Assembly: GCF_007846085.1 (NCBI RefSeq)
Contig: NZ_VOEJ01000008.1
Coordinates: 186,001-250,000, forward strand
Length of the DNA stretch: 64,000 nucleotides
Source: Mucilaginibacter pallidiroseus
GTDB taxonomy: Bacteria > Bacteroidota > Bacteroidia > Sphingobacteriales > Sphingobacteriaceae
Reading direction: 5' to 3'
Positions 2,621 to 58,475 of this stretch are shown in pieces. Each line of letters begins with the position of its first letter. Positions within the stretch are counted from its first letter, which is position 1. The position numbers and the translations under genes are program-made. The notes below the pieces were generated by a model. That model saw only the letters and a program-made list of their open reading frames with translations, was not told the DNA's origin and did not search any database.

Positions 2621-3880
2621 TTAGCGGTTGTAAGGATATTCGTTTATCCAATGGAAGCCACGCGTCATCAAGCGGTTATTGTTACTATCCATATCTTTAA
2701 GCAAATCAAGGTTAAAATTGATGCCCTGGTAGTTACCGTCAAGCACCATTTTCCCTGCACTAAGTTGTTTAAAGCCAAATTTGTAATGAGGCACTTTGTC
2801 GTCGTCTACAAACAAAAATAGCTGCTTACTTGCCATATCCACATTGCACAAAAATCCCAAAGGTGCAAGGCCGCTACGCCCAAACACTGCTGAATCTTTA
2901 TTGATGGTTAGGCTCGTCCATTTAAACTGATCAATTGGCTTAACAATTTCATATTTGCCATATACCTTTTGCTGCTCGGTATAGGGCTTCATTTGTTTTT
3001 GGCGGTAAATACCCTGATAAATATTACCTGCCAGCACTTCGACTATAAAAAGGTACTTCACTACCGCTAGCGCTATATTTTGCCATTTGCTATATCGTGG
3101 TGCTTCCACTATTGCCGGGGCTACCGGCCTGTTCATTACAAAAAAGTTAAATAGCCTTTTAACGTCTTTAGCCAGCAAGAAAAGGCTTAAAACCACCAGC
3201 GTTGTCGACAGAATTTTAACCGGCACATCAAAGCAATAATTTACCATCATAATGTTTGCCGATACGGCAAGGGTAACCAACGCGCCAAATGTAGCCGTGC
3301 GTCTGAAAAATAAAAGTACGCCGCCCAAAACCTCGGCAAAGCCCATAAAATAATTGTAGCCTGCAGAGTAACCAAAGAATGTCCAGGCCAAACCCATTGG
3401 CGATGAAGCGCCATAAGTTTCCTCGAGGCGATAAGTGCCGGGGAACGGAAACTGCGTTTTAAAGATCTTGGCAAAACCATACATCACCATAGTGGTAGCC
3501 AAATAGTACCTGATAATTACTGAAACCCAATACAGCAGTTTGCTGTAGTTACGACGCTTATAATCGAGCGCCGACCATATCGCCGTTATAATTATGCTTG
3601 TAACAAGGGCGGATAGCAGCAACAGATAATTGAGTGTTGTGTCGCCACTGCCTGTTTGAAAAGGCTTTAAATCTCCGCTTAGCTGGTATAAATTCTTACC
3701 CAGCCAGTTGGCCAAAACCATAAACGGAATGGAGTAGATTTGATATGCCTGGTGAAAAAAGGGAAGGGGTATGCCGCCATTTGGGTTGAGCAGTATAACG
3801 GTCACCAAAAAAACAGAAAAGAACCTGAAAGCCAGTTTAGTTGCCCATAGCCAGGTTGTTGTATCACTTGTGTATTGCAT
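2621..3880 (-). CDS. DoxX-like integral membrane protein
   Basis: A 419-residue polytopic inner-membrane protein with about seven hydrophobic segments in its first 260 residues. The middle part (about residues 115-225: a YGFAKIF segment, then a MGFAEVLGGVLLFFRR segment) resembles the DoxX/MauE/VKOR-like four-helix membrane family, whose members are often linked to quinone or thiol redox chemistry. The C-terminal 150 residues are soluble and of unknown fold. It lies 8 bases downstream of the second MG2/plug paralogue, so it is probably the last gene of that operon. The family call is by resemblance; the function is unknown. Confidence 0.6.
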   Translation of the reverse strand: MQYTSDTTTWLWATKLAFRFFSVFLVTVILLNPNGGIPLPFFHQAYQIYSIPFMVLANWLGKNLYQLSGDLKPFQTGSGDTTLNYLLLLSALVTSIIITAIWSALDYKRRNYSKLLYWVSVIIRYYLATTMVMYGFAKIFKTQFPFPGTYRLEETYGASSPMGLAWTFFGYSAGYNYFMGFAEVLGGVLLFFRRTATFGALVTLAVSANIMMVNYCFDVPVKILSTTLVVLSLFLLAKDVKRLFNFFVMNRPVAPAIVEAPRYSKWQNIALAVVKYLFIVEVLAGNIYQGIYRQKQMKPYTEQQKVYGKYEIVKPIDQFKWTSLTINKDSAVFGRSGLAPLGFLCNVDMASKQLFLFVDDDKVPHYKFGFKQLSAGKMVLDGNYQGINFNLDLLKDMDSNNNRLMTRGFHWINEYPYNR

Positions 3881-3888
3881 TTTTTATT

Positions 3889-6660
3889 TTACTGTTTTAA
3901 TACCGCTTTTGGAGATATAGTTATGGATGTTGTTTTATAGCCGAAGTGTCCGTTAAAGTCCGCCCCTTGTACAGTAACGGTATATGTGGCAGGTTTATCG
4001 GCAGCGTAAAATGATATTGTTGCACGGCCGTCGCTATCTGTAAATACGTTTGGCTCCCAATGTATGGTTGATCGATAATCCGGTTCTGTTGTTTTGATAT
4101 TGGGGAGATAGCGTGGCCTGTAAAAGTCCATAGGTAATTGCATGGGTTGCGGACGATATACAAAGGTACCCACCGGCGATTTTTGTAAAGGCCCCTGCCC
4201 GCCCCGTGTGGTAATGACCAGGTATGCCACCACATCATTTATGGCCGCGATATAACCAGTGTAAATGGCTATTTTCTTGGTATCGCTAACCATAGTAGCC
4301 TGTAAATAATTATTAAGATGGTCATAAAAGGAGTTAGGCCCGCTGTAAACAAAGTTTTGCGATACGCCCCGCCCGTCAACAATAATATCTCTTAAAAAAT
4401 TTCCCTTGATAGAAAATACCCGATTTGCCGATAGTCTAAAAGGGCCACTGTAAAGGCCGGCACCACTGCCTGTAAGGTAATCAAATAGGGAAACCCTTTT
4501 GGCTTTTATCAATTCCTTTTCGCTTATTACTTGTTTAGGAGCAGCAAAAAAGCTACCTATCATCTTTGGCGATACTTTGCTTTTTATCACTACTTCATTA
4601 AGCAGTTCTCCTTTGATTTCCCCGGCTTTTATGCGCTCAAACTTTTTAGCCTGTTGCTGGCTAACAACCGCGTAATTTATCATTGTGCTATCCGGATTGA
4701 CTTGCCAAGGCATAATTTGGCGTGTTGGTAAGCTAACAAGTTTAGCCGGCTCAAAGTCGTCGAATTGCAGGTTTGATCCTGACGAGCCGCCCCGCTTTGT
4801 TCTGAGTTTAACAGTGTAGGCTGCAGTATCGCTGAGCGGTAAATCTGTGAATGCAAAGCGGCCTTGCTCGTCGCTAACAGTATCTAAAAGGAGAAGCTCT
4901 CCATTGTGGGCAGACATCAGCACAACTTTAACACCTGACGATGGTTTACCAAACAAACCCGTAACCTTACCTCTAACACCATTGTCGGTTTCAGCTATAA
5001 AACTTTGTTTAGTATTTGTGTTATCCCAATTAAATCCAACCCATCCTTGTGTTAGCAATAAATTATCTAAAGCTTTAACTGTTTCCTTGCTATTATCCTT
5101 AAAATACCAGGCTGCATTTTCAACGTACCCCTTCAAGTTGGCACTTAGCAGCATATGGCTAAAAATATTGTCTGAATATTTAGCCAGTTTTACAAGATCA
5201 TCGCTGGTAACGCTTACCGAGAGGTTTCCACGGACAGATTTTCCCATGTTGTCACTAACATGCAGATTGATAGCTATACTATCTTTTGGATGTAGCGTAG
5301 TGTTATTTGGGTGTATATCTATATTAAGTTTACCTGTCGGGTTGTCGATAAAAATCAGTCGTTGTGTTAATAGTTGATTGTTTGCGTTTAACAAAGCCAA
5401 TTGATTTATTCCTTTCCCAAGCCGGTTTTTAGGGATGCGAACGTTATAAAAACCATTCGTTAGCTCTATCTCTGTAGCATAGCAAACGGAGTCGCGTATT
5501 TGCGTTATAAAAACATAGTGATTCCTCGCCAAATCAGGTGTAGCTGAAACATACAGGTACACAGAATCAGGATTTACGGTATTCTCAACCCGCATAACAA
5601 TGCCTGACTCTTTTACTTTTGGCAACGTTATCCGCCTCGTATCTCCGTTTGGTGATGATAGTACGGCAGTATAGCTTTCTGCGGCATTTGGCACCAGCAT
5701 GAAACTGCCCATTCCAAATTTAGCTGATGAAAATTGTGTTATAGTTTCATTTTTGTTGTTTACAATTATGCCTTTTACATCCTTACCTAAGCCATCTGTA
5801 CCAACTGCCTTAAACGCAACCTTATTTAAAAGCCCGGCAACCAAATAGCCACCCTCAGGCAAAAATTGCACATCTATACTTTGAGGGATATCTAAATTTA
5901 GTGGAAATGTGATGTGTTGCCGTTGATTTTTAGCCTCACTGATATCTACCGAGATACCACTGCCTGTTCCTTCAGATTGCAACCTGAAACTGAATTTAAA
6001 TTCGCCATTTTGAGATGTTGTTAACCTGTTTTTTAAAATGGTTTTGCCGCTACCACTTACTTTTACTTCAAGAGGTTGGTTCGCAACAGCTAAATTGCCC
6101 TGCATGGTTTTAAGCCTTCCAGTTAACTCTATTTCGGTACCATCAGGTAAGTTTGTTAAGTTAACGGTATTTGTCAATAGCCACGATGAGTTTCCCGGCT
6201 TACCGATATAAAAGCGTGTAGTAAAAAAATTGTCGTACCCGAAATTTTGCGACCAACTGGTATATGCCCTTAAGGTATACGTGCCGTTATTGATGATGTC
6301 TTTTTCCAGCGGGATATACCCTTGCCCCGTGCCGGAAATCAAGGGTATAGTAATTTGTTGTATTAATTTACTACTGTCATTAATTAGCTCTACATGTAAT
6401 TTGGCGCTCTTAGATGTAGGCATGTTATCAGCAGCCATAACTATATAGGCTTTAAACCATACAGTGTCGCCTACGGCATAATAAGGTTTATCAAAATGGA
6501 GATAAATTTTTTCGGCCGGATGCTTATCGTAATATGCTTTGGTCTCAGCTATTAAATTTTTCAGCCCGTGGGCAGCATTGGGCTGCGCACGGGCTGAAAT
6601 TGTTATAGCAAGTGCAAGGATGAGTGCAATAAACTTAAAATAACAGCATTTTGCAGGCAT
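3889..6660 (-). CDS. Secreted MG2 / TonB-plug domain protein, copy B
   Basis: A 923-residue exported protein with a signal peptide (residues 1-25, ending SARA-Q). Near residue 47 comes the EKIYLHFDKPYYAVGDTVWFKAY signature of macroglobulin MG2-type beta-sandwich domains. A carboxypeptidase-regulatory-like beta domain follows at about residues 575-640, then a TonB-receptor plug-like segment (LLNEVVIKSK near residue 715, ending ITTRGG near 840). The C-terminal WEPNVFTDSDGRATISFY block (about 880) also recalls alpha-2-macroglobulins. No outer-membrane barrel follows the plug. It is a tandem paralogue of the gene at 6669-9428, 8 bases apart. The role is unknown; attachment to an outer-membrane or surface complex is an inference. 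Confidence 0.7.
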   Translation of the reverse strand: MPAKCCYFKFIALILALAITISARAQPNAAHGLKNLIAETKAYYDKHPAEKIYLHFDKPYYAVGDTVWFKAYIVMAADNMPTSKSAKLHVELINDSSKLIQQITIPLISGTGQGYIPLEKDIINNGTYTLRAYTSWSQNFGYDNFFTTRFYIGKPGNSSWLLTNTVNLTNLPDGTEIELTGRLKTMQGNLAVANQPLEVKVSGSGKTILKNRLTTSQNGEFKFSFRLQSEGTGSGISVDISEAKNQRQHITFPLNLDIPQSIDVQFLPEGGYLVAGLLNKVAFKAVGTDGLGKDVKGIIVNNKNETITQFSSAKFGMGSFMLVPNAAESYTAVLSSPNGDTRRITLPKVKESGIVMRVENTVNPDSVYLYVSATPDLARNHYVFITQIRDSVCYATEIELTNGFYNVRIPKNRLGKGINQLALLNANNQLLTQRLIFIDNPTGKLNIDIHPNNTTLHPKDSIAINLHVSDNMGKSVRGNLSVSVTSDDLVKLAKYSDNIFSHMLLSANLKGYVENAAWYFKDNSKETVKALDNLLLTQGWVGFNWDNTNTKQSFIAETDNGVRGKVTGLFGKPSSGVKVVLMSAHNGELLLLDTVSDEQGRFAFTDLPLSDTAAYTVKLRTKRGGSSGSNLQFDDFEPAKLVSLPTRQIMPWQVNPDSTMINYAVVSQQQAKKFERIKAGEIKGELLNEVVIKSKVSPKMIGSFFAAPKQVISEKELIKAKRVSLFDYLTGSGAGLYSGPFRLSANRVFSIKGNFLRDIIVDGRGVSQNFVYSGPNSFYDHLNNYLQATMVSDTKKIAIYTGYIAAINDVVAYLVITTRGGQGPLQKSPVGTFVYRPQPMQLPMDFYRPRYLPNIKTTEPDYRSTIHWEPNVFTDSDGRATISFYAADKPATYTVTVQGADFNGHFGYKTTSITISPKAVLKQ

Positions 6661-6668
6661 ATACTTGT

Positions 6669-9428
6669 TTATTGCGTTTGCCTTGGTTGTACTTTAATCT
6701 TGGATGTATAAACGCCAAACCGTCCGTTTAAATCCGTACCCTGTACATTTATGGTGTATGTGCCCGGTTTGTCGGCCGTATAAAAGGATAACGTTGCTTT
6801 TCCGTTAGCGTCAGTAACCATGTTAGGCTCCCAAAATATGGTTGAGCGAAGGTCGGGCTGGCCGGTGTTTTCGTTAGCTGCGTAGCGGGGCTGATAAAAT
6901 TTCCTCGTAGTTTGGAAAGGTAAAGGATGATATACATAAAGCCCCCTTGTTGGCTTTATCCATGGGCCGTGACCACCACGGGTAGTAATAAAAATTACGT
7001 TAATAACAGGGCCGTACAATTTGATGCTTTTAACGCTCGATGCAGGTACGTAATTTAAAAGCTCTTTTATGTATGCCATAGCTGCGCCGTTCATGGGGTC
7101 TGTAAAGAAGGTTCCAAACATTCCTTTCAAACTTATATTGTCAACAAAAATATCATCGACAGCTACTTGGTTTATCACGAAGCGCGAGTATCCCTGGTCA
7201 ACAGGCCTGCTTGAAATGTTATTTGCAAAAAACCTTGCTTCCCTAAAGCCTCTAAGCCTTATGTAAATTAAATCCATCAGCGTTTTATCGCCTGCGGCAA
7301 TCAATTCTTTTTCGTCAATGCCATCAATCTCCCTCAAAAAATTGTTATTAACCCTAACGTTCTTTTGGCCATTGATAATTACTGTTTCCAGTTGATTAAT
7401 GCCGTTAAAATTAGTTTTCCGTTTTTCGTGGAAAGCCTGGTTCTGGCTAAGTAAATAATTGTTTACAGTTGTATCATTTGATGCGTAAAGTGGTGCAAAC
7501 GGCTTTTGTACATCTGTATAAGCTGCGGGTTTAAAATCATCGATGGTAAACTTGGCGTTTGTATTTTTACCCTTACTGTTTTTAAGCCTGAAGGTATAAC
7601 CAATTGTATCTGAAATGGGCAGGTTATTAAAGGCAAAGTACCCATCTTTATTACTAACAGTATCCGCAAAAAAAGCCCCGCCGCCGGTGGCAACTAAATA
7701 AACTTTGGTATCAGCCACAGGCTTATTTAATAAATTGGTGAGTTTCCCTGTAATTCCGTTAGTAGGCTCGGCCGCGAAAACCGGCTCAGTTAAAGGCGCG
7801 GTTATTTTATCCCAACTGTAGCCAACCCAGGCCTGGGTAAGCATTAAATTATCCAGCTGCCTTTTTACCTCAAGAGTGGTATCTTTAAAATACCATGCAG
7901 GTGTTTCGATATTGCCTTTCAAATCTGAAGTAAGCAATAAGTTGCTCATAATGTTGTTGGCATATTGTTGCTGCGCAACCTGGCTATCATCCGTTACAGA
8001 AACGGAGAATGATCCTGTAACCGGCTTATTAAGTTTATCGGTTACAGATATCGTGAGAGCTACGCTGTCGCGTGTGCTGTATTTTGAAAGGCTTGGGGCA
8101 ACATTAATAGCCAAGTTGTCTGGTTGTTCAATAAAAACAGCACGTTCGGCCAATGGTTGCGCATCAGCGTTGAGTAACGAAAACCTGACAACGCCGGCAG
8201 GGAAAATATTTTTAGGAATACCAACGCTAAAACTGTTTTTATTAAAGGTTACCGGGGCCCCGTAAAAAACCTGGTCTCTGGATTGGCCTATCAGCATTGC
8301 TCCCTGTGGGATAGTGGTGTTGTTGCTGTTTAAATACACAAACACCGAGTCGCGATTGGTAACACTGTTGGCGCGCATAACCACTCCCGAAGATTCAAGG
8401 GCCGGTAGCGATACTGTTTTTTGCGTGCCGTTAAATTTTATAATTGCTTTATAAGTTTCTGCAGCCTGCGGTACAAATGAAAAGCTGCCTATACCTTTAT
8501 ATTGCGACTGCAATGTACTAACCGGTTTGTTTTTACTGTCGACAACTACACCTTCAACATCAACACCCAAGCCGTTTTGGCCAATGGCTTTAAAACCTAT
8601 ACGGTTATACAAACCCGCAACCATATTGCCACCTTCGGGCATAAATTGAAGATCAACTTCTTTATTTAAAGCGGGATATACCGGGATACTTGCAATTTGC
8701 TTTTTGCTTACAGCATCTCTGATTAGTACAACGACATTATCGGCATTTGCAGGTATGTTAAAATTCAAATCGATCTTCCCGTTGCTGCCGGTATTTTGCT
8801 TCGACGACGAAATTTTCTTACTTCCTTGGACTACCTGTATGTCGACGTTTTTCGATATGATAGGTTGTGCTTTTATGTTTGTAAAATCAATAGCCATACC
8901 AACGTTTGTGTTGGTACCCTGGGGTTTTATACTTTGCTTAGCATTAAAAAGCCAGCCATTGTTGCTTGCATCGCCAATATTAAATTGCTGATGAAAAAAA
9001 TACTCTTCCCCAAAATTACGTGTCCAGCTGGTGTAGGCACGGACAGTATAATTACCTTTCCATATAGTGGCAGAATCCATCGCCAAATATCCGGCTGCCA
9101 AACCATTGTTAACAGGTAAAGCAAATCTCTTAATTACCTGTGCGCTATCATTAAATAATTCAATGTAAAGTTTTGCGCTAAGCTTAGATGGCGCATTGCC
9201 CTGGCCATTTGTAACATATCCCTTAAACCAGGCTGTGTCATTTACAGCGTAGTAAGGCTTATCAAAATGCAGATATATTTTTTCTGAAGGCTTTTTATTA
9301 TAGAAGCTTTCAACTTGTTGAACTGTTTTTTTTACGCCTACCAAGACGTTACTTTGCGCTAAGGCGTTAAAAAACAGTGTTGTTAAAATTGATGGTAAAA
9401 AGATGCGCAATAAGGACGACTTTTTCAT
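6669..9428 (-). CDS. Secreted MG2 / TonB-plug domain protein, copy A
   Basis: A 919-residue protein with the same order of parts as its neighbour: a signal peptide (about 25 residues, ending NALA-Q), an MG2-type EKIYLHFDKPYYAVNDTAWFKGY motif near residue 50, repeated beta-sandwich segments, a regulatory-like beta domain around residues 565-635, a plug-like region (LETVIINGQK near 695 to ITTRGGHGP near 820) and a terminal STIFWEPNMVTDANGKA block. Length and motif order match copy B closely, but the plug region differs the most. It is the first gene of the three-gene minus-strand operon, with its own promoter at 9454-9461. Annotation pipelines often call such proteins TonB receptors, but they lack the barrel. 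Confidence 0.7.
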   Translation of the reverse strand: MKKSSLLRIFLPSILTTLFFNALAQSNVLVGVKKTVQQVESFYNKKPSEKIYLHFDKPYYAVNDTAWFKGYVTNGQGNAPSKLSAKLYIELFNDSAQVIKRFALPVNNGLAAGYLAMDSATIWKGNYTVRAYTSWTRNFGEEYFFHQQFNIGDASNNGWLFNAKQSIKPQGTNTNVGMAIDFTNIKAQPIISKNVDIQVVQGSKKISSSKQNTGSNGKIDLNFNIPANADNVVVLIRDAVSKKQIASIPVYPALNKEVDLQFMPEGGNMVAGLYNRIGFKAIGQNGLGVDVEGVVVDSKNKPVSTLQSQYKGIGSFSFVPQAAETYKAIIKFNGTQKTVSLPALESSGVVMRANSVTNRDSVFVYLNSNNTTIPQGAMLIGQSRDQVFYGAPVTFNKNSFSVGIPKNIFPAGVVRFSLLNADAQPLAERAVFIEQPDNLAINVAPSLSKYSTRDSVALTISVTDKLNKPVTGSFSVSVTDDSQVAQQQYANNIMSNLLLTSDLKGNIETPAWYFKDTTLEVKRQLDNLMLTQAWVGYSWDKITAPLTEPVFAAEPTNGITGKLTNLLNKPVADTKVYLVATGGGAFFADTVSNKDGYFAFNNLPISDTIGYTFRLKNSKGKNTNAKFTIDDFKPAAYTDVQKPFAPLYASNDTTVNNYLLSQNQAFHEKRKTNFNGINQLETVIINGQKNVRVNNNFLREIDGIDEKELIAAGDKTLMDLIYIRLRGFREARFFANNISSRPVDQGYSRFVINQVAVDDIFVDNISLKGMFGTFFTDPMNGAAMAYIKELLNYVPASSVKSIKLYGPVINVIFITTRGGHGPWIKPTRGLYVYHPLPFQTTRKFYQPRYAANENTGQPDLRSTIFWEPNMVTDANGKATLSFYTADKPGTYTINVQGTDLNGRFGVYTSKIKVQPRQTQ

Positions 9429-55190: not shown

Positions 55191-58100
55191 ATGATCAAAA
55201 CTTTACTAATTGGTATTGTTGTGCTTTTTTCATTCTCAAATATTTTTGCGCAAAGCAAAAATATAACCGGCAAGGTTACGGAAAATGAAACCAGTGCGGT
55301 ACTACCTGGCGTTACCGTTAATGTAAAAGGCACCACTATTGGTGTTGTTACCGATTTCGCGGGCCGATATTCAATAAACGTCCCATCGGGCACAAGTGTG
55401 CTGGTGTTTTCGCAAATTGGAATGCAACCAGCCGAAGTAAGCGTTGGCAATCAACAAACAATTAACATTCAACTTAAGCCGAATACCAGGCAACTAAAAG
55501 AGGTAATTGTTAACGCTATTGGTGTGGAAACGCAGCGCGATAAATTTGCGTCTTCTGTATCAACCGTAAAGGGTAAAAATATTGCCCAGAGCGGCGAAAC
55601 CAATCTGCTTACAGGCATGAGCAGCAAACTTTCCGGCGTTTTGATAACACGTAATGGGGGCGATCCCGGCTCAGGCGGCTATATCCAGGTGCGCGGGCAA
55701 AACACCATTAATGGTAATGCGCAGCCCCTGTTTATTATAGACGGCATGCCGGTAAGCAACTCAAATGATAATCTTGGTGCCGCAGCGGCAAACGGCATTG
55801 TGCAACAGTCACGCATCAATGACATTAACCCGGAAGACATTGAAAGTATGGAAGTGCTAAAGGGTGCTTCGGCTGCAGCTTTATGGGGAACCCGTGCTGC
55901 AAATGGCGTTATCATCATTAAAACTAAGCGTGGTAAAAACACCAATGGTAAATTGAACATCACCTATAAGTCAACCATATCATTTGATCGGGTAAACAAG
56001 TTACCACCATTACAATCTACATATGGCCAAGGTTCGGGCGGCTTTTATAACCAGGGTAATAAGGTAAGTTTTGGCGACTACATACCTTCACGCAGCGGCG
56101 GGGCAGATACTTACATTACCTCGCCAGGCGCCGCTGGCTACCAGGGCTATGTTACTTTTCCCGACGGATCACAACGCTACGCCATCCAATCCGGCAATGC
56201 AGCTAACCCCCACGGTGGCAAAAACTCCACCGAAACTTACAATCGTTACAACGATATTTTTCAGACCGGGCACTTTTGGGAAAATAACCTCACATTAAGT
56301 GGCGGCGATAGCAAATCCACTTTCTTAATGAGCTATGGTAACCTCAATCAGGATGGCATAGCAAAGGCATTCAGCAAGTACGGGCGTAATACCGCCCGGG
56401 TTAACGCAGCTACACAATTTAACAGCTGGTTGCGTGGATCGGCCAATATCGGCTATTCTAAAATCAACTCGCAACGCAACCAGGAAGGGGATAATGTTGA
56501 CGGTCTTATGCTTGGTGCAACACGTACCCCGGCAGATTTCGACAACCGATACTACACGGGCACGTACACAAGCGTTACCGGCGAGATGTTCCAAAATGCG
56601 CATGTATCGTACCGTAACCCTTTAGGTAAAGATTTGGGAACTATTTACGCAAACCCTGTTTGGAACTTATATAATAACCGCAATAGCAGTGATGTAGACA
56701 GGATTACCGGAACGCTTGAGCTAAGTGTTACACCTACCAATTGGCTTAATATAACCGGCCGCACGGGTATTGATAACTTTACAGATGACCGTACCGAGCG
56801 TTTTGCACGCAACTCGGCTACCTTTTTAAATGGCTATCTATCTAAAAACCTGTTGATGGAAAAGCAATTTAACAGCGATATTTTCGCAAGCGCCAACAAA
56901 ACCTGGAGCGATAATTTTAAGGGTACCTTGCTTGCCGGCTTTAATTACAACAACAGGCGACGCAGCACACGATCTGATGCTATATCAAACTTAATAGTTC
57001 CTACAGCACCGGATATATTGACCAACGCGCTTAACTCAAACCTGGTTGCCGGTAACACTACATCATTGATCCGCACTTATGCATACTATTTGCAAACAGA
57101 TGTGGAAGCGCTTGATATGTTTTACCTAACCCTAACCGGCCGTAACGAAAGTGCCTCTACGTTTGGAAATAAAACAAGTAGCAGCTTCTTCTTCCCATCA
57201 GCAGCACTGGCCTGGCAGTTAACAAAGCTTAAAGCTTTTAACCAGATATCTTTTCTTGAATTTGCTAAGTTGCGCGCTACCTGGGGGCAGGTGGGTATAC
57301 AACCGCAGCCTTATCAAAACTTCACGGTGTTTAGCCCTGCTGTTTATGGTGATACATTTACCCGCGGCCTTTCAGCTGCCAGCGCGCTATACGGAGGCGG
57401 CTACAGCCGCAGCTTTGTACAAGGCAACGACTATTTAAAACCTGAACGTAAAACAGAAACCGAGTTGGGCCTTGATTTGCGTATGTTTAAGAGCAGGGTA
57501 AATTTTTCTGCAACGGTTTATACAAACAAAACTAAAGATGTTATCCTCTCGCTTAACGTACCTAATGAAACAGGTTTTACCGTAAGGAATACCAATGCAG
57601 CCGTATTATCAAACAAAGGTATTGAGCTTGATGCCGGGGCAGATGTAATCAGTCAAAACGCTTTCCGCTGGAATGTATCTGCCAATTTTTCTGCCAACCG
57701 CAGCAAAGTAAACACCCTTGCTGGTGCTACAGTATACACCTTGCCCGATGCATTTTTAGGTTTGGCTTCGCTTATTCCTGGTCAGCCGTTTGGCGTGTTC
57801 TATTCTACTGACTTTCTTAAAGATGCGGCAGGCAAATACGTATTAGATAGCAACGGCTTCCCTCAGCCCGGTATCAGCAATGAAATTGTTGGTAACCCAA
57901 ATCCAAAATGGCAGGGCGGATTAGGCACAACTTTGTCTTATAAGAAAGTATCGCTATATGTGCTATTCAGCCGTGTTGCAGGAAATTCCATATTTAACGG
58001 AACCCGTGGCTCATTATACAGTATAGGTACGCATGGCGACCAAGGCAATACCGCTGTTGCACCTGCGGGTGGCGTGCGCGACGTAACCGGTGCTTTAATC

Positions 58101-58475
58101 CCGGCCGGTACGTCGTTCCAGGGTTATGTGACTGATTTTGGCGGCGGTCCTGTGGCTATCAATCAGGCGTGGTGGCAAGGGCGTGGCTCGGCAAGTAATA
58201 CTGCCTCATACAAACAGTTTGTTGAAGACGGCAGCGCTACACGTTTGCGTGAAGTTACCTTAACCTACACGCTTAACTCGCCGGCATTTCAGCGCTTTAC
58301 ACACCTTGAAGCCGTAGATTTTAGCATTACCGGAAGAAACCTTGTACTATGGACGAAATATAGCGGCGTTGATCCGGAGACTAACGTGACCGGGGCAGGT
58401 TTGTCGCGCGGGCAGGATTGGTTTAATAACCCTAACACCCGTTCATTCCTGTTCTCGTTACAAATCAGGTATTAA
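55191..58475 (+). CDS. SusC/RagA-type TonB-dependent outer-membrane transporter
   Basis: A 1094-residue TonB-dependent receptor. A signal peptide (about 1-20, ending IFAQ) is followed by the CarboxypepD_reg-like domain (KNITGKVTENETSAVLPGVTV, about 23-43), the plug with the SusC signature GDPGSGGYIQVRG and LFIIDGMPV, LKGASAAALWGTRAANGVI, and a 22-strand barrel ending in the usual aromatic C-terminus (FLFSLQIRY). It imports oligomers delivered by the adjoining SusD-like lipoprotein. No sigma/anti-sigma pair is adjacent. The substrate cannot be inferred from the receptor itself. Confidence 0.96.
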   Translation: MIKTLLIGIVVLFSFSNIFAQSKNITGKVTENETSAVLPGVTVNVKGTTIGVVTDFAGRYSINVPSGTSVLVFSQIGMQPAEVSVGNQQTINIQLKPNTRQLKEVIVNAIGVETQRDKFASSVSTVKGKNIAQSGETNLLTGMSSKLSGVLITRNGGDPGSGGYIQVRGQNTINGNAQPLFIIDGMPVSNSNDNLGAAAANGIVQQSRINDINPEDIESMEVLKGASAAALWGTRAANGVIIIKTKRGKNTNGKLNITYKSTISFDRVNKLPPLQSTYGQGSGGFYNQGNKVSFGDYIPSRSGGADTYITSPGAAGYQGYVTFPDGSQRYAIQSGNAANPHGGKNSTETYNRYNDIFQTGHFWENNLTLSGGDSKSTFLMSYGNLNQDGIAKAFSKYGRNTARVNAATQFNSWLRGSANIGYSKINSQRNQEGDNVDGLMLGATRTPADFDNRYYTGTYTSVTGEMFQNAHVSYRNPLGKDLGTIYANPVWNLYNNRNSSDVDRITGTLELSVTPTNWLNITGRTGIDNFTDDRTERFARNSATFLNGYLSKNLLMEKQFNSDIFASANKTWSDNFKGTLLAGFNYNNRRRSTRSDAISNLIVPTAPDILTNALNSNLVAGNTTSLIRTYAYYLQTDVEALDMFYLTLTGRNESASTFGNKTSSSFFFPSAALAWQLTKLKAFNQISFLEFAKLRATWGQVGIQPQPYQNFTVFSPAVYGDTFTRGLSAASALYGGGYSRSFVQGNDYLKPERKTETELGLDLRMFKSRVNFSATVYTNKTKDVILSLNVPNETGFTVRNTNAAVLSNKGIELDAGADVISQNAFRWNVSANFSANRSKVNTLAGATVYTLPDAFLGLASLIPGQPFGVFYSTDFLKDAAGKYVLDSNGFPQPGISNEIVGNPNPKWQGGLGTTLSYKKVSLYVLFSRVAGNSIFNGTRGSLYSIGTHGDQGNTAVAPAGGVRDVTGALIPAGTSFQGYVTDFGGGPVAINQAWWQGRGSASNTASYKQFVEDGSATRLREVTLTYTLNSPAFQRFTHLEAVDFSITGRNLVLWTKYSGVDPETNVTGAGLSRGQDWFNNPNTRSFLFSLQIRY

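What the first reader, a model, noticed from the sequence alone, without database searches (positions are those of the whole stretch)
3889..9428. Tandem secreted proteins joining MG2 macroglobulin and TonB-plug-like domains without a barrel
Two paralogues, about 920 residues each, have signal peptide, MG2-type domains, a plug-like region ending ITTRGG and a macroglobulin-like C-terminus. A plug without a barrel is hard to explain as a transporter; it could insert into, or compete for, partner TonB receptors, or use the plug fold for binding. The plug region is the most different between copies, suggesting divergent partners. A DoxX-like membrane protein is co-encoded.
Basis: partly seen in the sequence, partly recalled or inferred. 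Interest (0 to 1): 0.5.

Follow-up and report, generated by a model that had tools for sequence, protein, structure and literature searches.

The report
Macroglobulin-like proteins with borrowed transporter plug
Two neighbouring secreted bacterial proteins are built like immune-type macroglobulins but carry, where those keep their protease bait, the stopper of an outer-membrane nutrient channel; relatives that still have the chemical trap sit beside a channel gene that lacks its stopper, which suggests that the stopper works inside a partner protein.

Summary
The two ORFs are real (919 and 923 aa, 37% identical). They belong to a multi-copy Bacteroidota family: signal peptide, MG2, MG3, more macroglobulin domains, SusC-type NTE (CarboxypepD_reg), TonB-box-like motif, plug, MG7-like C-terminus. 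Neither window plug is found by Pfam, but their clade's profile matches SusC plugs (controls negative) and a plug-only model aligns to TonB-receptor plugs, with modest scores.

The main result lies in relatives. Of 41 thioester-domain (TED) relatives examined, 40 carry a SusC-like plug between macroglobulin domains, about where alpha-2-macroglobulins keep the bait region. All 40 have directly upstream, on the same strand, a SusC-like barrel gene without a plug; the one without plug has no such neighbour. A SusC transporter is thus split, its TonB box and plug sitting in a macroglobulin.

The window pair is a TED-less branch with strongly diverged plugs. In its genome all 21 SusCs over the cut-off include the plug region, and no plug-less SusC turned up. 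So 'plug acting in a partner barrel' is well supported for the relatives and only possible for the window pair. My searches of open-licence papers found nothing on this. Nothing was tested experimentally.

The parts
6669..9428 (-). copy 1 (919 aa): secreted macroglobulin-like protein with NTE and plug
   Evidence: ORF; Pfam; segment HMMs; model
9354..9428 (-). copy 1 signal peptide (residues about 1-25)
   Evidence: by inspection of the translation
8982..9293 (-). copy 1 MG2 (residues 46-149)
   Evidence: Pfam PF01835 29.2 bits, below cut-off 32.8; family HMM, which includes this sequence
8679..8951 (-). copy 1 MG3-like (residues 160-250)
   Evidence: family HMM
8112..8663 (-). copy 1 CORE macroglobulin domains (residues 256-439)
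   Evidence: family HMM; fold match
7794..8108 (-). copy 1 MG6-like (residues 441-545)
   Evidence: family HMM
7515..7760 (-). copy 1 NTE / CarboxypepD_reg (residues 557-638)
   Evidence: Pfam PF13620 25.8 bits, below cut-off 32.3; family HMM
7374..7391 (-). copy 1 TonB-box-like hexamer LETVII (residues 680-685)
   Evidence: pattern, written after seeing the sequences
6954..7418 (-). copy 1 plug region (residues 671-825)
   Evidence: family HMM; profile-profile match of the clade to SusC plugs
6687..6926 (-). copy 1 MG7-like C-terminal domain (residues 835-914)
   Evidence: family HMM; PF00207 16.8 bits, below cut-off 21; fold match
3889..6660 (-). copy 2 (923 aa): tandem paralogue of the same architecture
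   Evidence: ORF
6211..6525 (-). copy 2 MG2 (residues 46-150)
   Evidence: Pfam PF01835 33.3 bits, above cut-off
5899..6174 (-). copy 2 MG3-like (residues 163-254)
   Evidence: family HMM
5338..5883 (-). copy 2 CORE macroglobulin domains (residues 260-441)
   Evidence: family HMM
5005..5322 (-). copy 2 MG6-like (residues 447-552)
   Evidence: family HMM
4738..4983 (-). copy 2 NTE / CarboxypepD_reg (residues 560-641)
   Evidence: Pfam PF13620 33.9 bits, above cut-off 32.3
4585..4602 (-). copy 2 TonB-box-like hexamer LNEVVI (residues 687-692)
   Evidence: pattern, written after seeing the sequences
4180..4635 (-). copy 2 plug region (residues 676-827)
   Evidence: family HMM; plug-only model
3913..4152 (-). 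copy 2 MG7-like C-terminal domain (residues 837-916)
   Evidence: family HMM
2621..3880 (-). DoxX-type membrane protein, next gene in the same direction; linkage not seen at other family loci
   Evidence: PF07681 25.2 bits, cut-off 23.6

Best explanation
The family is a macroglobulin scaffold (MG2 to MG7) into which the N-terminal module of a SusC transporter (NTE, TonB box, plug) has been built, in the interval where alpha-2-macroglobulins carry the bait region. Shown: the domain order in window and relatives; in TED-bearing relatives a macroglobulin with thioester motif plus plug, encoded directly behind a SusC-like barrel gene that has no plug. Inferred for those relatives: the macroglobulin's plug closes the partner's barrel from the periplasm (both ends of a TonB-receptor plug face the periplasm; recalled), so the macroglobulin body and its thioester domain hang under the channel mouth. 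TonB pulling on the TonB box, or a ligand moving the plug, would then open the pore and trip the macroglobulin in place of protease cleavage of a bait; something that has come through could be caught covalently. Inferred for the window pair: secreted TED-less members of this design that cannot trap covalently, whose drifted plug has no dedicated SusC barrel and now serves as a docking or sensing module on the same scaffold, perhaps still touched by TonB. Separate odds: architecture 0.9; trans-plug in the TED relatives 0.65; docking/sensing plug in the window pair 0.4. The number below is for the statement as a whole.
For: Fold: Foldseek 3.6e-18 to a C4b chain, also TEP1, CD109, E. coli A2M; VIA Z 14.3, rmsd 9.3 over 297 residues, to E. 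coli A2M, model 47-916 on chain 384-1020. Profile of 56 members: SusC plug 9.9e-20; C3, C4 and A2M MG2 6.6e-5 to 0.0053. Pfam in 56 members: MG2 52, CarboxypepD_reg 42, Plug 32. Four TED relatives: TED, PF00207 and MG2 in 4 of 4, Plug in 3 of 4. Pairing: 41 TED loci (11 genera of one family, 4 of a second, one genome outside): 40 with plug, 40 of 40 of these with the barrel gene upstream on the same strand, gap 2-5 bp in 33 of 40. SusC-only plug HMM: 86.5-153.6 bits in the 40 macroglobulins, at most 2.2 bits in the 40 barrels. SusC model TIGR04056 (981 positions): barrel L085 matches 208-981, macroglobulin L083 matches from 58 (all below the family cut-off). Converse: barrel queries at 1e-60 hit 13 of 299 and 27 of 197 genomes; all but two are TED-plug genomes. 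TonB-box-like hexamer in 13 of 14 TED rows and 27 of 34 window-clade rows, shuffles 2.1 and 2.4. Deleting or replacing VDEVVV in SusC Bt1763 gave a growth defect on levan like loss of SusD (PMC7782687, passages).
Against: No interaction was tested; gene order is indirect evidence, and the 40 pairs are not independent. The window genome gave no TED relative and no plug-less SusC: all 21 matches over the TIGR04056 cut-off include the plug region (56 of 81 candidates scored). Window-clade plugs score median 1.6 bits against SusC plugs, none of 34 reaches 25, versus median 123.8 for 14 TED rows, so a fit into a SusC barrel is doubtful. No sign of special plug-barrel co-evolution: plug distances correlate with barrel distances at 0.69, other macroglobulin parts at 0.92-0.95; partial r 0.37, no better than MG2 0.38, MG6 0.48, CTD 0.44. 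The hexamer pattern was written after seeing the sequences, at least one window-clade hit (L034) lies outside the box position, and only 16 of 38 other TED-less rows have it. The bait-region correspondence rests on Pfam order, with PF07703 and Plug seen together in only one protein (L084), plus recalled A2M anatomy.
Confidence: 0.55

Rival explanations
1. In the window proteins the plug is only an exapted binding or structural fold: a periplasmic or surface macroglobulin-like scaffold with no tie to any barrel or to TonB.
For: Window-clade plugs scarcely resemble SusC plugs (0 of 34 at 25 bits or more); no plug-less SusC found in the genome; no barrel beside the gene at the syntenic loci L089, L090, L091, L097.
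Against: A TonB-box-like hexamer persists in 27 of 34 window-clade rows; the order NTE, box, plug is kept; the plug fold appears kept.
Confidence: 0.35
2. The window proteins use their plugs on barrels that have plugs of their own (one of the 21 SusCs, or another TonB receptor type), competing for the barrel or for TonB and so regulating it.
For: The genome has 21 SusCs; in TED relatives a free-standing plug is paired with a barrel; TonB-box-like hexamer kept.
Against: The drift of the plug argues against a fit into SusC barrels; no conserved barrel neighbour.
Confidence: 0.15
3. In the TED relatives the neighbouring genes are a fission product that works as an ordinary transporter: plug and barrel reassemble, and the macroglobulin is only a carrier of the plug without trapping activity.
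For: The two genes match complementary parts of one SusC model.
Against: The thioester motif P.GCFEQ is kept in 41 of 41, hard to explain without thioester chemistry.
Confidence: 0.2
4. The match to plugs is a chance resemblance of an alpha/beta insertion.
For: Singly, neither window plug matches; Foldseek gives no significant hit.
Against: Profile E 9.8e-10 with negative controls; 32 of 56 members match Pfam Plug alone; 49 of 50 listed structural matches are TonB receptors.
Confidence: 0.04

Closest known systems
Bacterial alpha-2-macroglobulins (E. coli ECAM; PF01835, PF07703, PF00207, PF07678)
   Same: MG2-to-MG7 scaffold in the window pair; TED relatives also have PF00207 and TED with P.GCFEQ
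   Different: SusC-type NTE, TonB box and plug lie before PF00207, about where A2M keeps its bait region (recalled anatomy); the window pair ends after MG7, without TED; few rows have a lipobox-like motif (2 of 86, crude pattern)
SusC/RagA TonB-dependent transporters (TIGR04056)
   Same: NTE, TonB box and plug in the same order; plug homologous to SusC plugs
   Different: No barrel on the same chain; in TED relatives the barrel is a separate neighbouring gene without plug
Separate 'Plug' protein of the T9SS translocon SprA (recalled, from no call)
   Same: A stopper protein acting on a large outer-membrane channel in trans
   Different: No relation to TonB plugs or macroglobulins is claimed; named only as what it might work like
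FecIR-type trans-envelope signalling (passages of PMC11658791)
   Same: Some split loci have an ECF sigma gene and a membrane protein beside the TonB-type barrel
   Different: Here the membrane protein itself carries a plug domain; its anti-sigma nature is inferred from position and by inspection

Membership tests
alpha-2-macroglobulin (window pair) | MG2 domain | tested here: met
   33.3 bits (cut-off 32.8) in copy 2; 29.2, below the cut-off, in copy 1; 52 of 56 members
alpha-2-macroglobulin (window pair) | A2M domain PF00207 (MG7) | tested here: inconclusive
   copy 1 16.8 bits, cut-off 21; none in copy 2; fold match reaches MG7
alpha-2-macroglobulin (window pair) | thioester domain with GCxEQ | tested here: not met
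   no PF07678 match and the chains end after the MG7-like domain
alpha-2-macroglobulin (TED relatives) | MG2, PF00207, TED with thioester motif | tested here: met
   Pfam in 4 of 4 scanned; P.GCFEQ in 41 of 41
alpha-2-macroglobulin (all) | protease-cleaved bait region | not testable with these tools
   needs biochemistry
SusC / TonB-dependent transporter (window pair) | plug domain | tested here: met
   only at profile level: E 9.8e-10; not by Pfam on single sequences
SusC / TonB-dependent transporter (window pair) | 22-stranded barrel on the same chain | tested here: not met
   no barrel family match; after the plug only about 90 residues of an MG7-like domain
SusC / TonB-dependent transporter (window pair) | functional TonB box | tested here: inconclusive
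   hexamers LETVII and LNEVVI at the right place; binding not testable
trans-plug pair (TED relatives) | plug-bearing macroglobulin next to a plug-less SusC-like barrel | tested here: met
   40 of 40 plug-bearing TED loci among 41 examined
trans-plug pair (window pair) | plug-less SusC barrel in the genome | tested here: not met
   21 of 21 matches over the cut-off include the plug region (56 of 81 candidates scored); barrel query one search gave no full-length plug-less match; other barrel families not examined
trans-plug pair (all) | physical plug-in-barrel complex | not testable with these tools
   no complex prediction or experiment on hand

The most novel reading that the evidence does not exclude
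A SusC transporter split in two: the barrel on one protein; TonB box and plug built into the bait position of a thioester macroglobulin. TonB or a ligand, rather than a protease, would trigger a covalent trap placed at the periplasmic mouth of an outer-membrane channel. In one bacterial family a sigma-linked membrane protein brings a second, competing plug for the same barrel. The window pair is a TED-less branch of this design.
Probability: 0.5. Interest if true: 0.92.

Novelty: new variant of a known kind. Interest (0 to 1): 0.74.

Why it matters
If right, activation of a macroglobulin need not depend on protease cleavage of a bait, and a TonB-dependent channel need not carry its own stopper; both are usual assumptions. 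It would give bacterial thioester macroglobulins a concrete place to act (the mouth of an outer-membrane pore) and offer a two-gene system in which a TonB-driven plug can be separated genetically from its barrel, so that how the plug opens and closes could be tested directly. For the window pair it gives a first account of a widespread, multi-copy group of 'MG2 plus plug' proteins.

Tried and rejected
A first SusC-plug HMM was contaminated: its 40 rows held a fragment of window copy 1 (L002), 14 plug proteins of the sigma-linked type and three unchecked ORFs (L043, L045, L066). The 41-bit score of copy 1 and the 8.7-bit score of copy 2, and the hhalign E 2e-20, are therefore withdrawn. One search repeated the tests with 22 rows from SusC proteins only (one gene in twice); the pairing result stood, and the single-sequence match of the window proteins vanished. 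The family's own PLUG HMM includes the window sequences and is no independent test of them.

Plug-less barrels beside TED-less members: candidates at L092 and L099 carry a divergent plug on reading; others were joined only through CarboxypepD_reg. DoxX as a conserved partner: not seen elsewhere. Co-evolution of plug and barrel from distances: not supported. Plug model with Foldseek: no significant hit; one of the 50 rows is not a TonB receptor. NCBIfam: nothing above cut-off for the window proteins. PDB by sequence with copy 1 alone: none. Viral contigs: 62 stretches, no relative. Loss or gain of TED: not settled, as the tree is unrooted and from a short search. Rows left out of that tree: 27 of the 41 TED loci, kept out as near-copies, and four cut TED pieces (L059, L061, L065, L067); fused ORFs with more than one unit were left out too.

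Literature: searches returned no paper; some returned 9 and 3 papers, none on this topic by their listings. led to two Bacteroidota BAM papers (passages only), in which the terms sought gave nothing on this combination; listing only, then passages of PMC7782687 and PMC11658791. One search did not find the recalled work on separately expressed FhuA plug and barrel.
Full report
WHAT IS THERE. Two tandem genes on the minus strand, 6669-9428 (919 aa, copy 1) and 3889-6660 (923 aa, copy 2), 8 bp apart, followed after another 8 bp by a DoxX-type gene at 2621-3880. The copies share 350 of 934 alignment columns. By domain, of aligned positions: MG2 50%, MG3 22%, CORE 40%, MG6-like 45%, NTE 41%, linker 28%, plug 34%, C-terminal domain 54%, so the plug is not the most divergent part. 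Four loci of the same genus (L089, L090, L091, L097) have one copy of the family beside the same neighbours (genes like those for ribosomal protein S1, PyrR and PyrB; names by inspection, from no call) and no DoxX homologue. The tandem copy and DoxX are thus local features.

FAMILY. In the window's genome copy 1 finds 12 match segments, which I read as six genes and a fragment. At E 1e-20 a match is in 83 of 101 genomes sampled from its bacterial family, at 1e-10 in 50 of 296 sampled from the phylum (both include the window's own). In 56 members scanned one by one Pfam finds MG2 in 52, CarboxypepD_reg in 42, Plug in 32 (E 0.01). A profile of the 56 matches SusC plugs of solved structures at 9.9e-20, and MG2 of C3, C4 and A2M at 6.6e-5 to 0.0053. 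Segment HMMs give the order MG2, MG3, CORE, MG6-like, NTE, plug, C-terminal domain; members of about 820 aa lack MG3; a few copies show no plug match.

FOLD. The model of copy 1 (12 sequences, pLDDT 63.8) matches macroglobulins: a C4b chain at 3.6e-18, TEP1, CD109, E. coli A2M by Foldseek; VIA Z 14.3, rmsd 9.3 over 297 residues, to E. coli A2M. The large rmsd means that domains are poorly placed. The plug alone of copy 2 (16 sequences, pLDDT 81) aligns to TonB-receptor plugs in 49 of 50 listed rows: Z 6.0 (4.1 A over 95) to a Fiu model, Z 5.0 (4.8 A over 100) to SusC BT2264, Z 4.9 (4.2 A over 99) to Bt1763. Such Z values alone would be weak; that the listed rows are nearly all one family gives them weight. 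By sequence the 14 window-clade plugs as a profile match 22 SusC plugs at E 9.8e-10, without the window rows at 7.5e-9; six other family segments give 0.06-0.34 and the reversed alignment 0.67. Singly neither window plug is detectable.

THE TED RELATIVES. Four relatives of 1506-1568 aa (L082-L085) continue after the MG7-like domain into a thioester domain: PF07678, PF00207 and MG2 in 4 of 4, Plug in 3 of 4. PF07703 is detected in L082 and L084; in L084 the plug lies between PF07703 and PF00207, the interval that in human A2M holds the bait region (recalled, not tested). L082, without plug, has two CarboxypepD_reg domains there. Two searches at E 1e-120 found such proteins in 12 of 299 genomes of one family and 29 of 197 of another; only two candidates per genome were scored. 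All but G465, cut by a contig end, were examined; with L082 that makes 41 loci. G465 too has a barrel match next to its macroglobulin fragment. The motif P.GCFEQ is in 41 of 41, the plug in 40 of 41. The loci are not independent: 11 genera in one family, 4 in the other, one genome outside.

THE SPLIT. All 40 plug-bearing loci have directly upstream, on the same strand, a gene of 806-996 aa for a SusC-like barrel; the gap is 2-5 bp in 33 of 40, extremes -86 (probably start-codon choice) and 82. The locus without plug has no such gene. With an HMM from SusC plugs only, the 40 macroglobulins score 86.5-153.6 bits and the 40 barrels at most 2.2. Three barrels were scanned against NCBIfam: all match the SusC model TIGR04056 below its cut-off, over positions 634-980, 592-981 and 208-981 (best stretches); the macroglobulin of L083 matches it from position 58, in a local match that runs on past the plug. 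Conversely the barrel queries at 1e-60 hit 13 of 299 and 27 of 197 genomes; 11 and 27 of these are TED-plug genomes (of 12 and 29), and the two others are matches in frames of 1077 and 1087 aa, the size of ordinary SusCs, whose plugs I did not check (two and four candidates per genome scored). The plug of L083 is up to 54% identical to plugs of ordinary SusCs in the window's genome.

TONB BOX. In SusC Bt1763, deleting or replacing VDEVVV gave a growth defect on levan like loss of SusD (PMC7782687, passages). A hexamer of this kind (for example LDEVVV) stands before the plug in 13 of 14 TED rows, 27 of 34 window-clade rows and 16 of 38 other rows; shuffles give 2.1, 2.4 and 3.2. The pattern was written after seeing the sequences, and at least one hit (L034) is out of place.

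A THIRD PLAYER. Upstream of the barrel, 25 of 40 loci examined encode another barrel-less plug protein (SusC-only HMM): 24 of the 29 loci of one family, and L083. The one full-length long form scanned carries plug, VWA and a T9SS tail; a 360-aa form carries only the plug. Several begin with a stretch that looks like an anti-sigma region and one membrane helix (inspection). An ECF sigma gene precedes on the same strand in 19 of 40 loci, in one more on the other strand (Pfam sigma domains in the two tested). In six loci the fetched stretch ends too early to tell, and one (L218) is only 1.3 kb. That two plugs compete for one barrel is speculation from this order.

THE WINDOW PAIR IN THIS PICTURE. 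On the joined macroglobulin domains the 14 TED rows are one side of a branch (SH-aLRT 96), and the window pair lies in a group of 34 TED-less rows (SH-aLRT 99, short search, unrooted). Similarity of the plug to SusC plugs falls from TED rows (median 123.8 bits, 14 rows) to other TED-less rows (52.5, 38 rows) to the window clade (1.6, 34 rows, none at 25 or more). The window's genome has 21 matches over the SusC cut-off, all including the plug region (56 of 81 candidates scored), and no TED relative. So the trans-plug reading is well supported where the barrel partner exists and only possible here. What persists in the window clade is the fold and, mostly, the TonB-box-like motif.

MECHANISM. 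Shown: architecture, motifs, gene pairing. Inferred: periplasmic macroglobulin body, plug-in-barrel complex, TonB or ligand trigger, covalent capture. Against it: plug distances correlate with barrel distances less (0.69) than those of other macroglobulin parts (0.92-0.95), and the partial correlation (0.37) is no better than for MG2, MG6 or CTD. Exchange of the plug with chromosomal SusC genes could explain this but was not tested.

PRINT. The searches returned no paper on this combination; the library holds open-licence papers only.

Noticed in passing
L083:677-2093, L226:1860-4706 and the stretch upstream of the plug-less barrel in 25 of 40 loci: A second barrel-less plug protein in the same locus: a likely anti-sigma-type membrane protein with plug (in one scanned form also VWA and T9SS tail), often behind an ECF sigma gene; in L083 it is a 156-aa protein with two plug-half repeats.
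   Followed up: partly
L016:11-5395; L017:6001-12709: Two or more units of the family fused in one open reading frame (1794 and 2236 aa).
   Followed up: no
L020:4772-6016; fused form in L086:6970-10716 and L088:4590-8210: A CarboxypepD_reg protein of 414 aa lies directly upstream of the family gene in one locus, and a CarboxypepD_reg region is fused to its N-terminus in two others: a possible partner of the TED-less forms.
   Followed up: partly
L258:1116-2450 (-) and L255:561-2498 (-), both in the window's genome: More barrel-less plug pieces: a protein with a plug half at its C-terminus, and one with plug fragments next to genes that look like an ECF sigma and an anti-sigma (inspection).
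   Followed up: partly
L082:6174-10880: TED-bearing relative without plug but with two CarboxypepD_reg domains in the same interval: possibly a state before plug capture or after its loss.
   Followed up: no
plugs of the macroglobulins in L083-L085 and L179-L215: The plug's distances follow those of the barrel poorly (r 0.69, other parts 0.92-0.95), as if plugs had been exchanged with other SusC genes.
   Followed up: partly
window 55191-58475 (+): A SusC-type receptor of 1094 aa with plug, matched by the family's plug HMM.
   Followed up: partly
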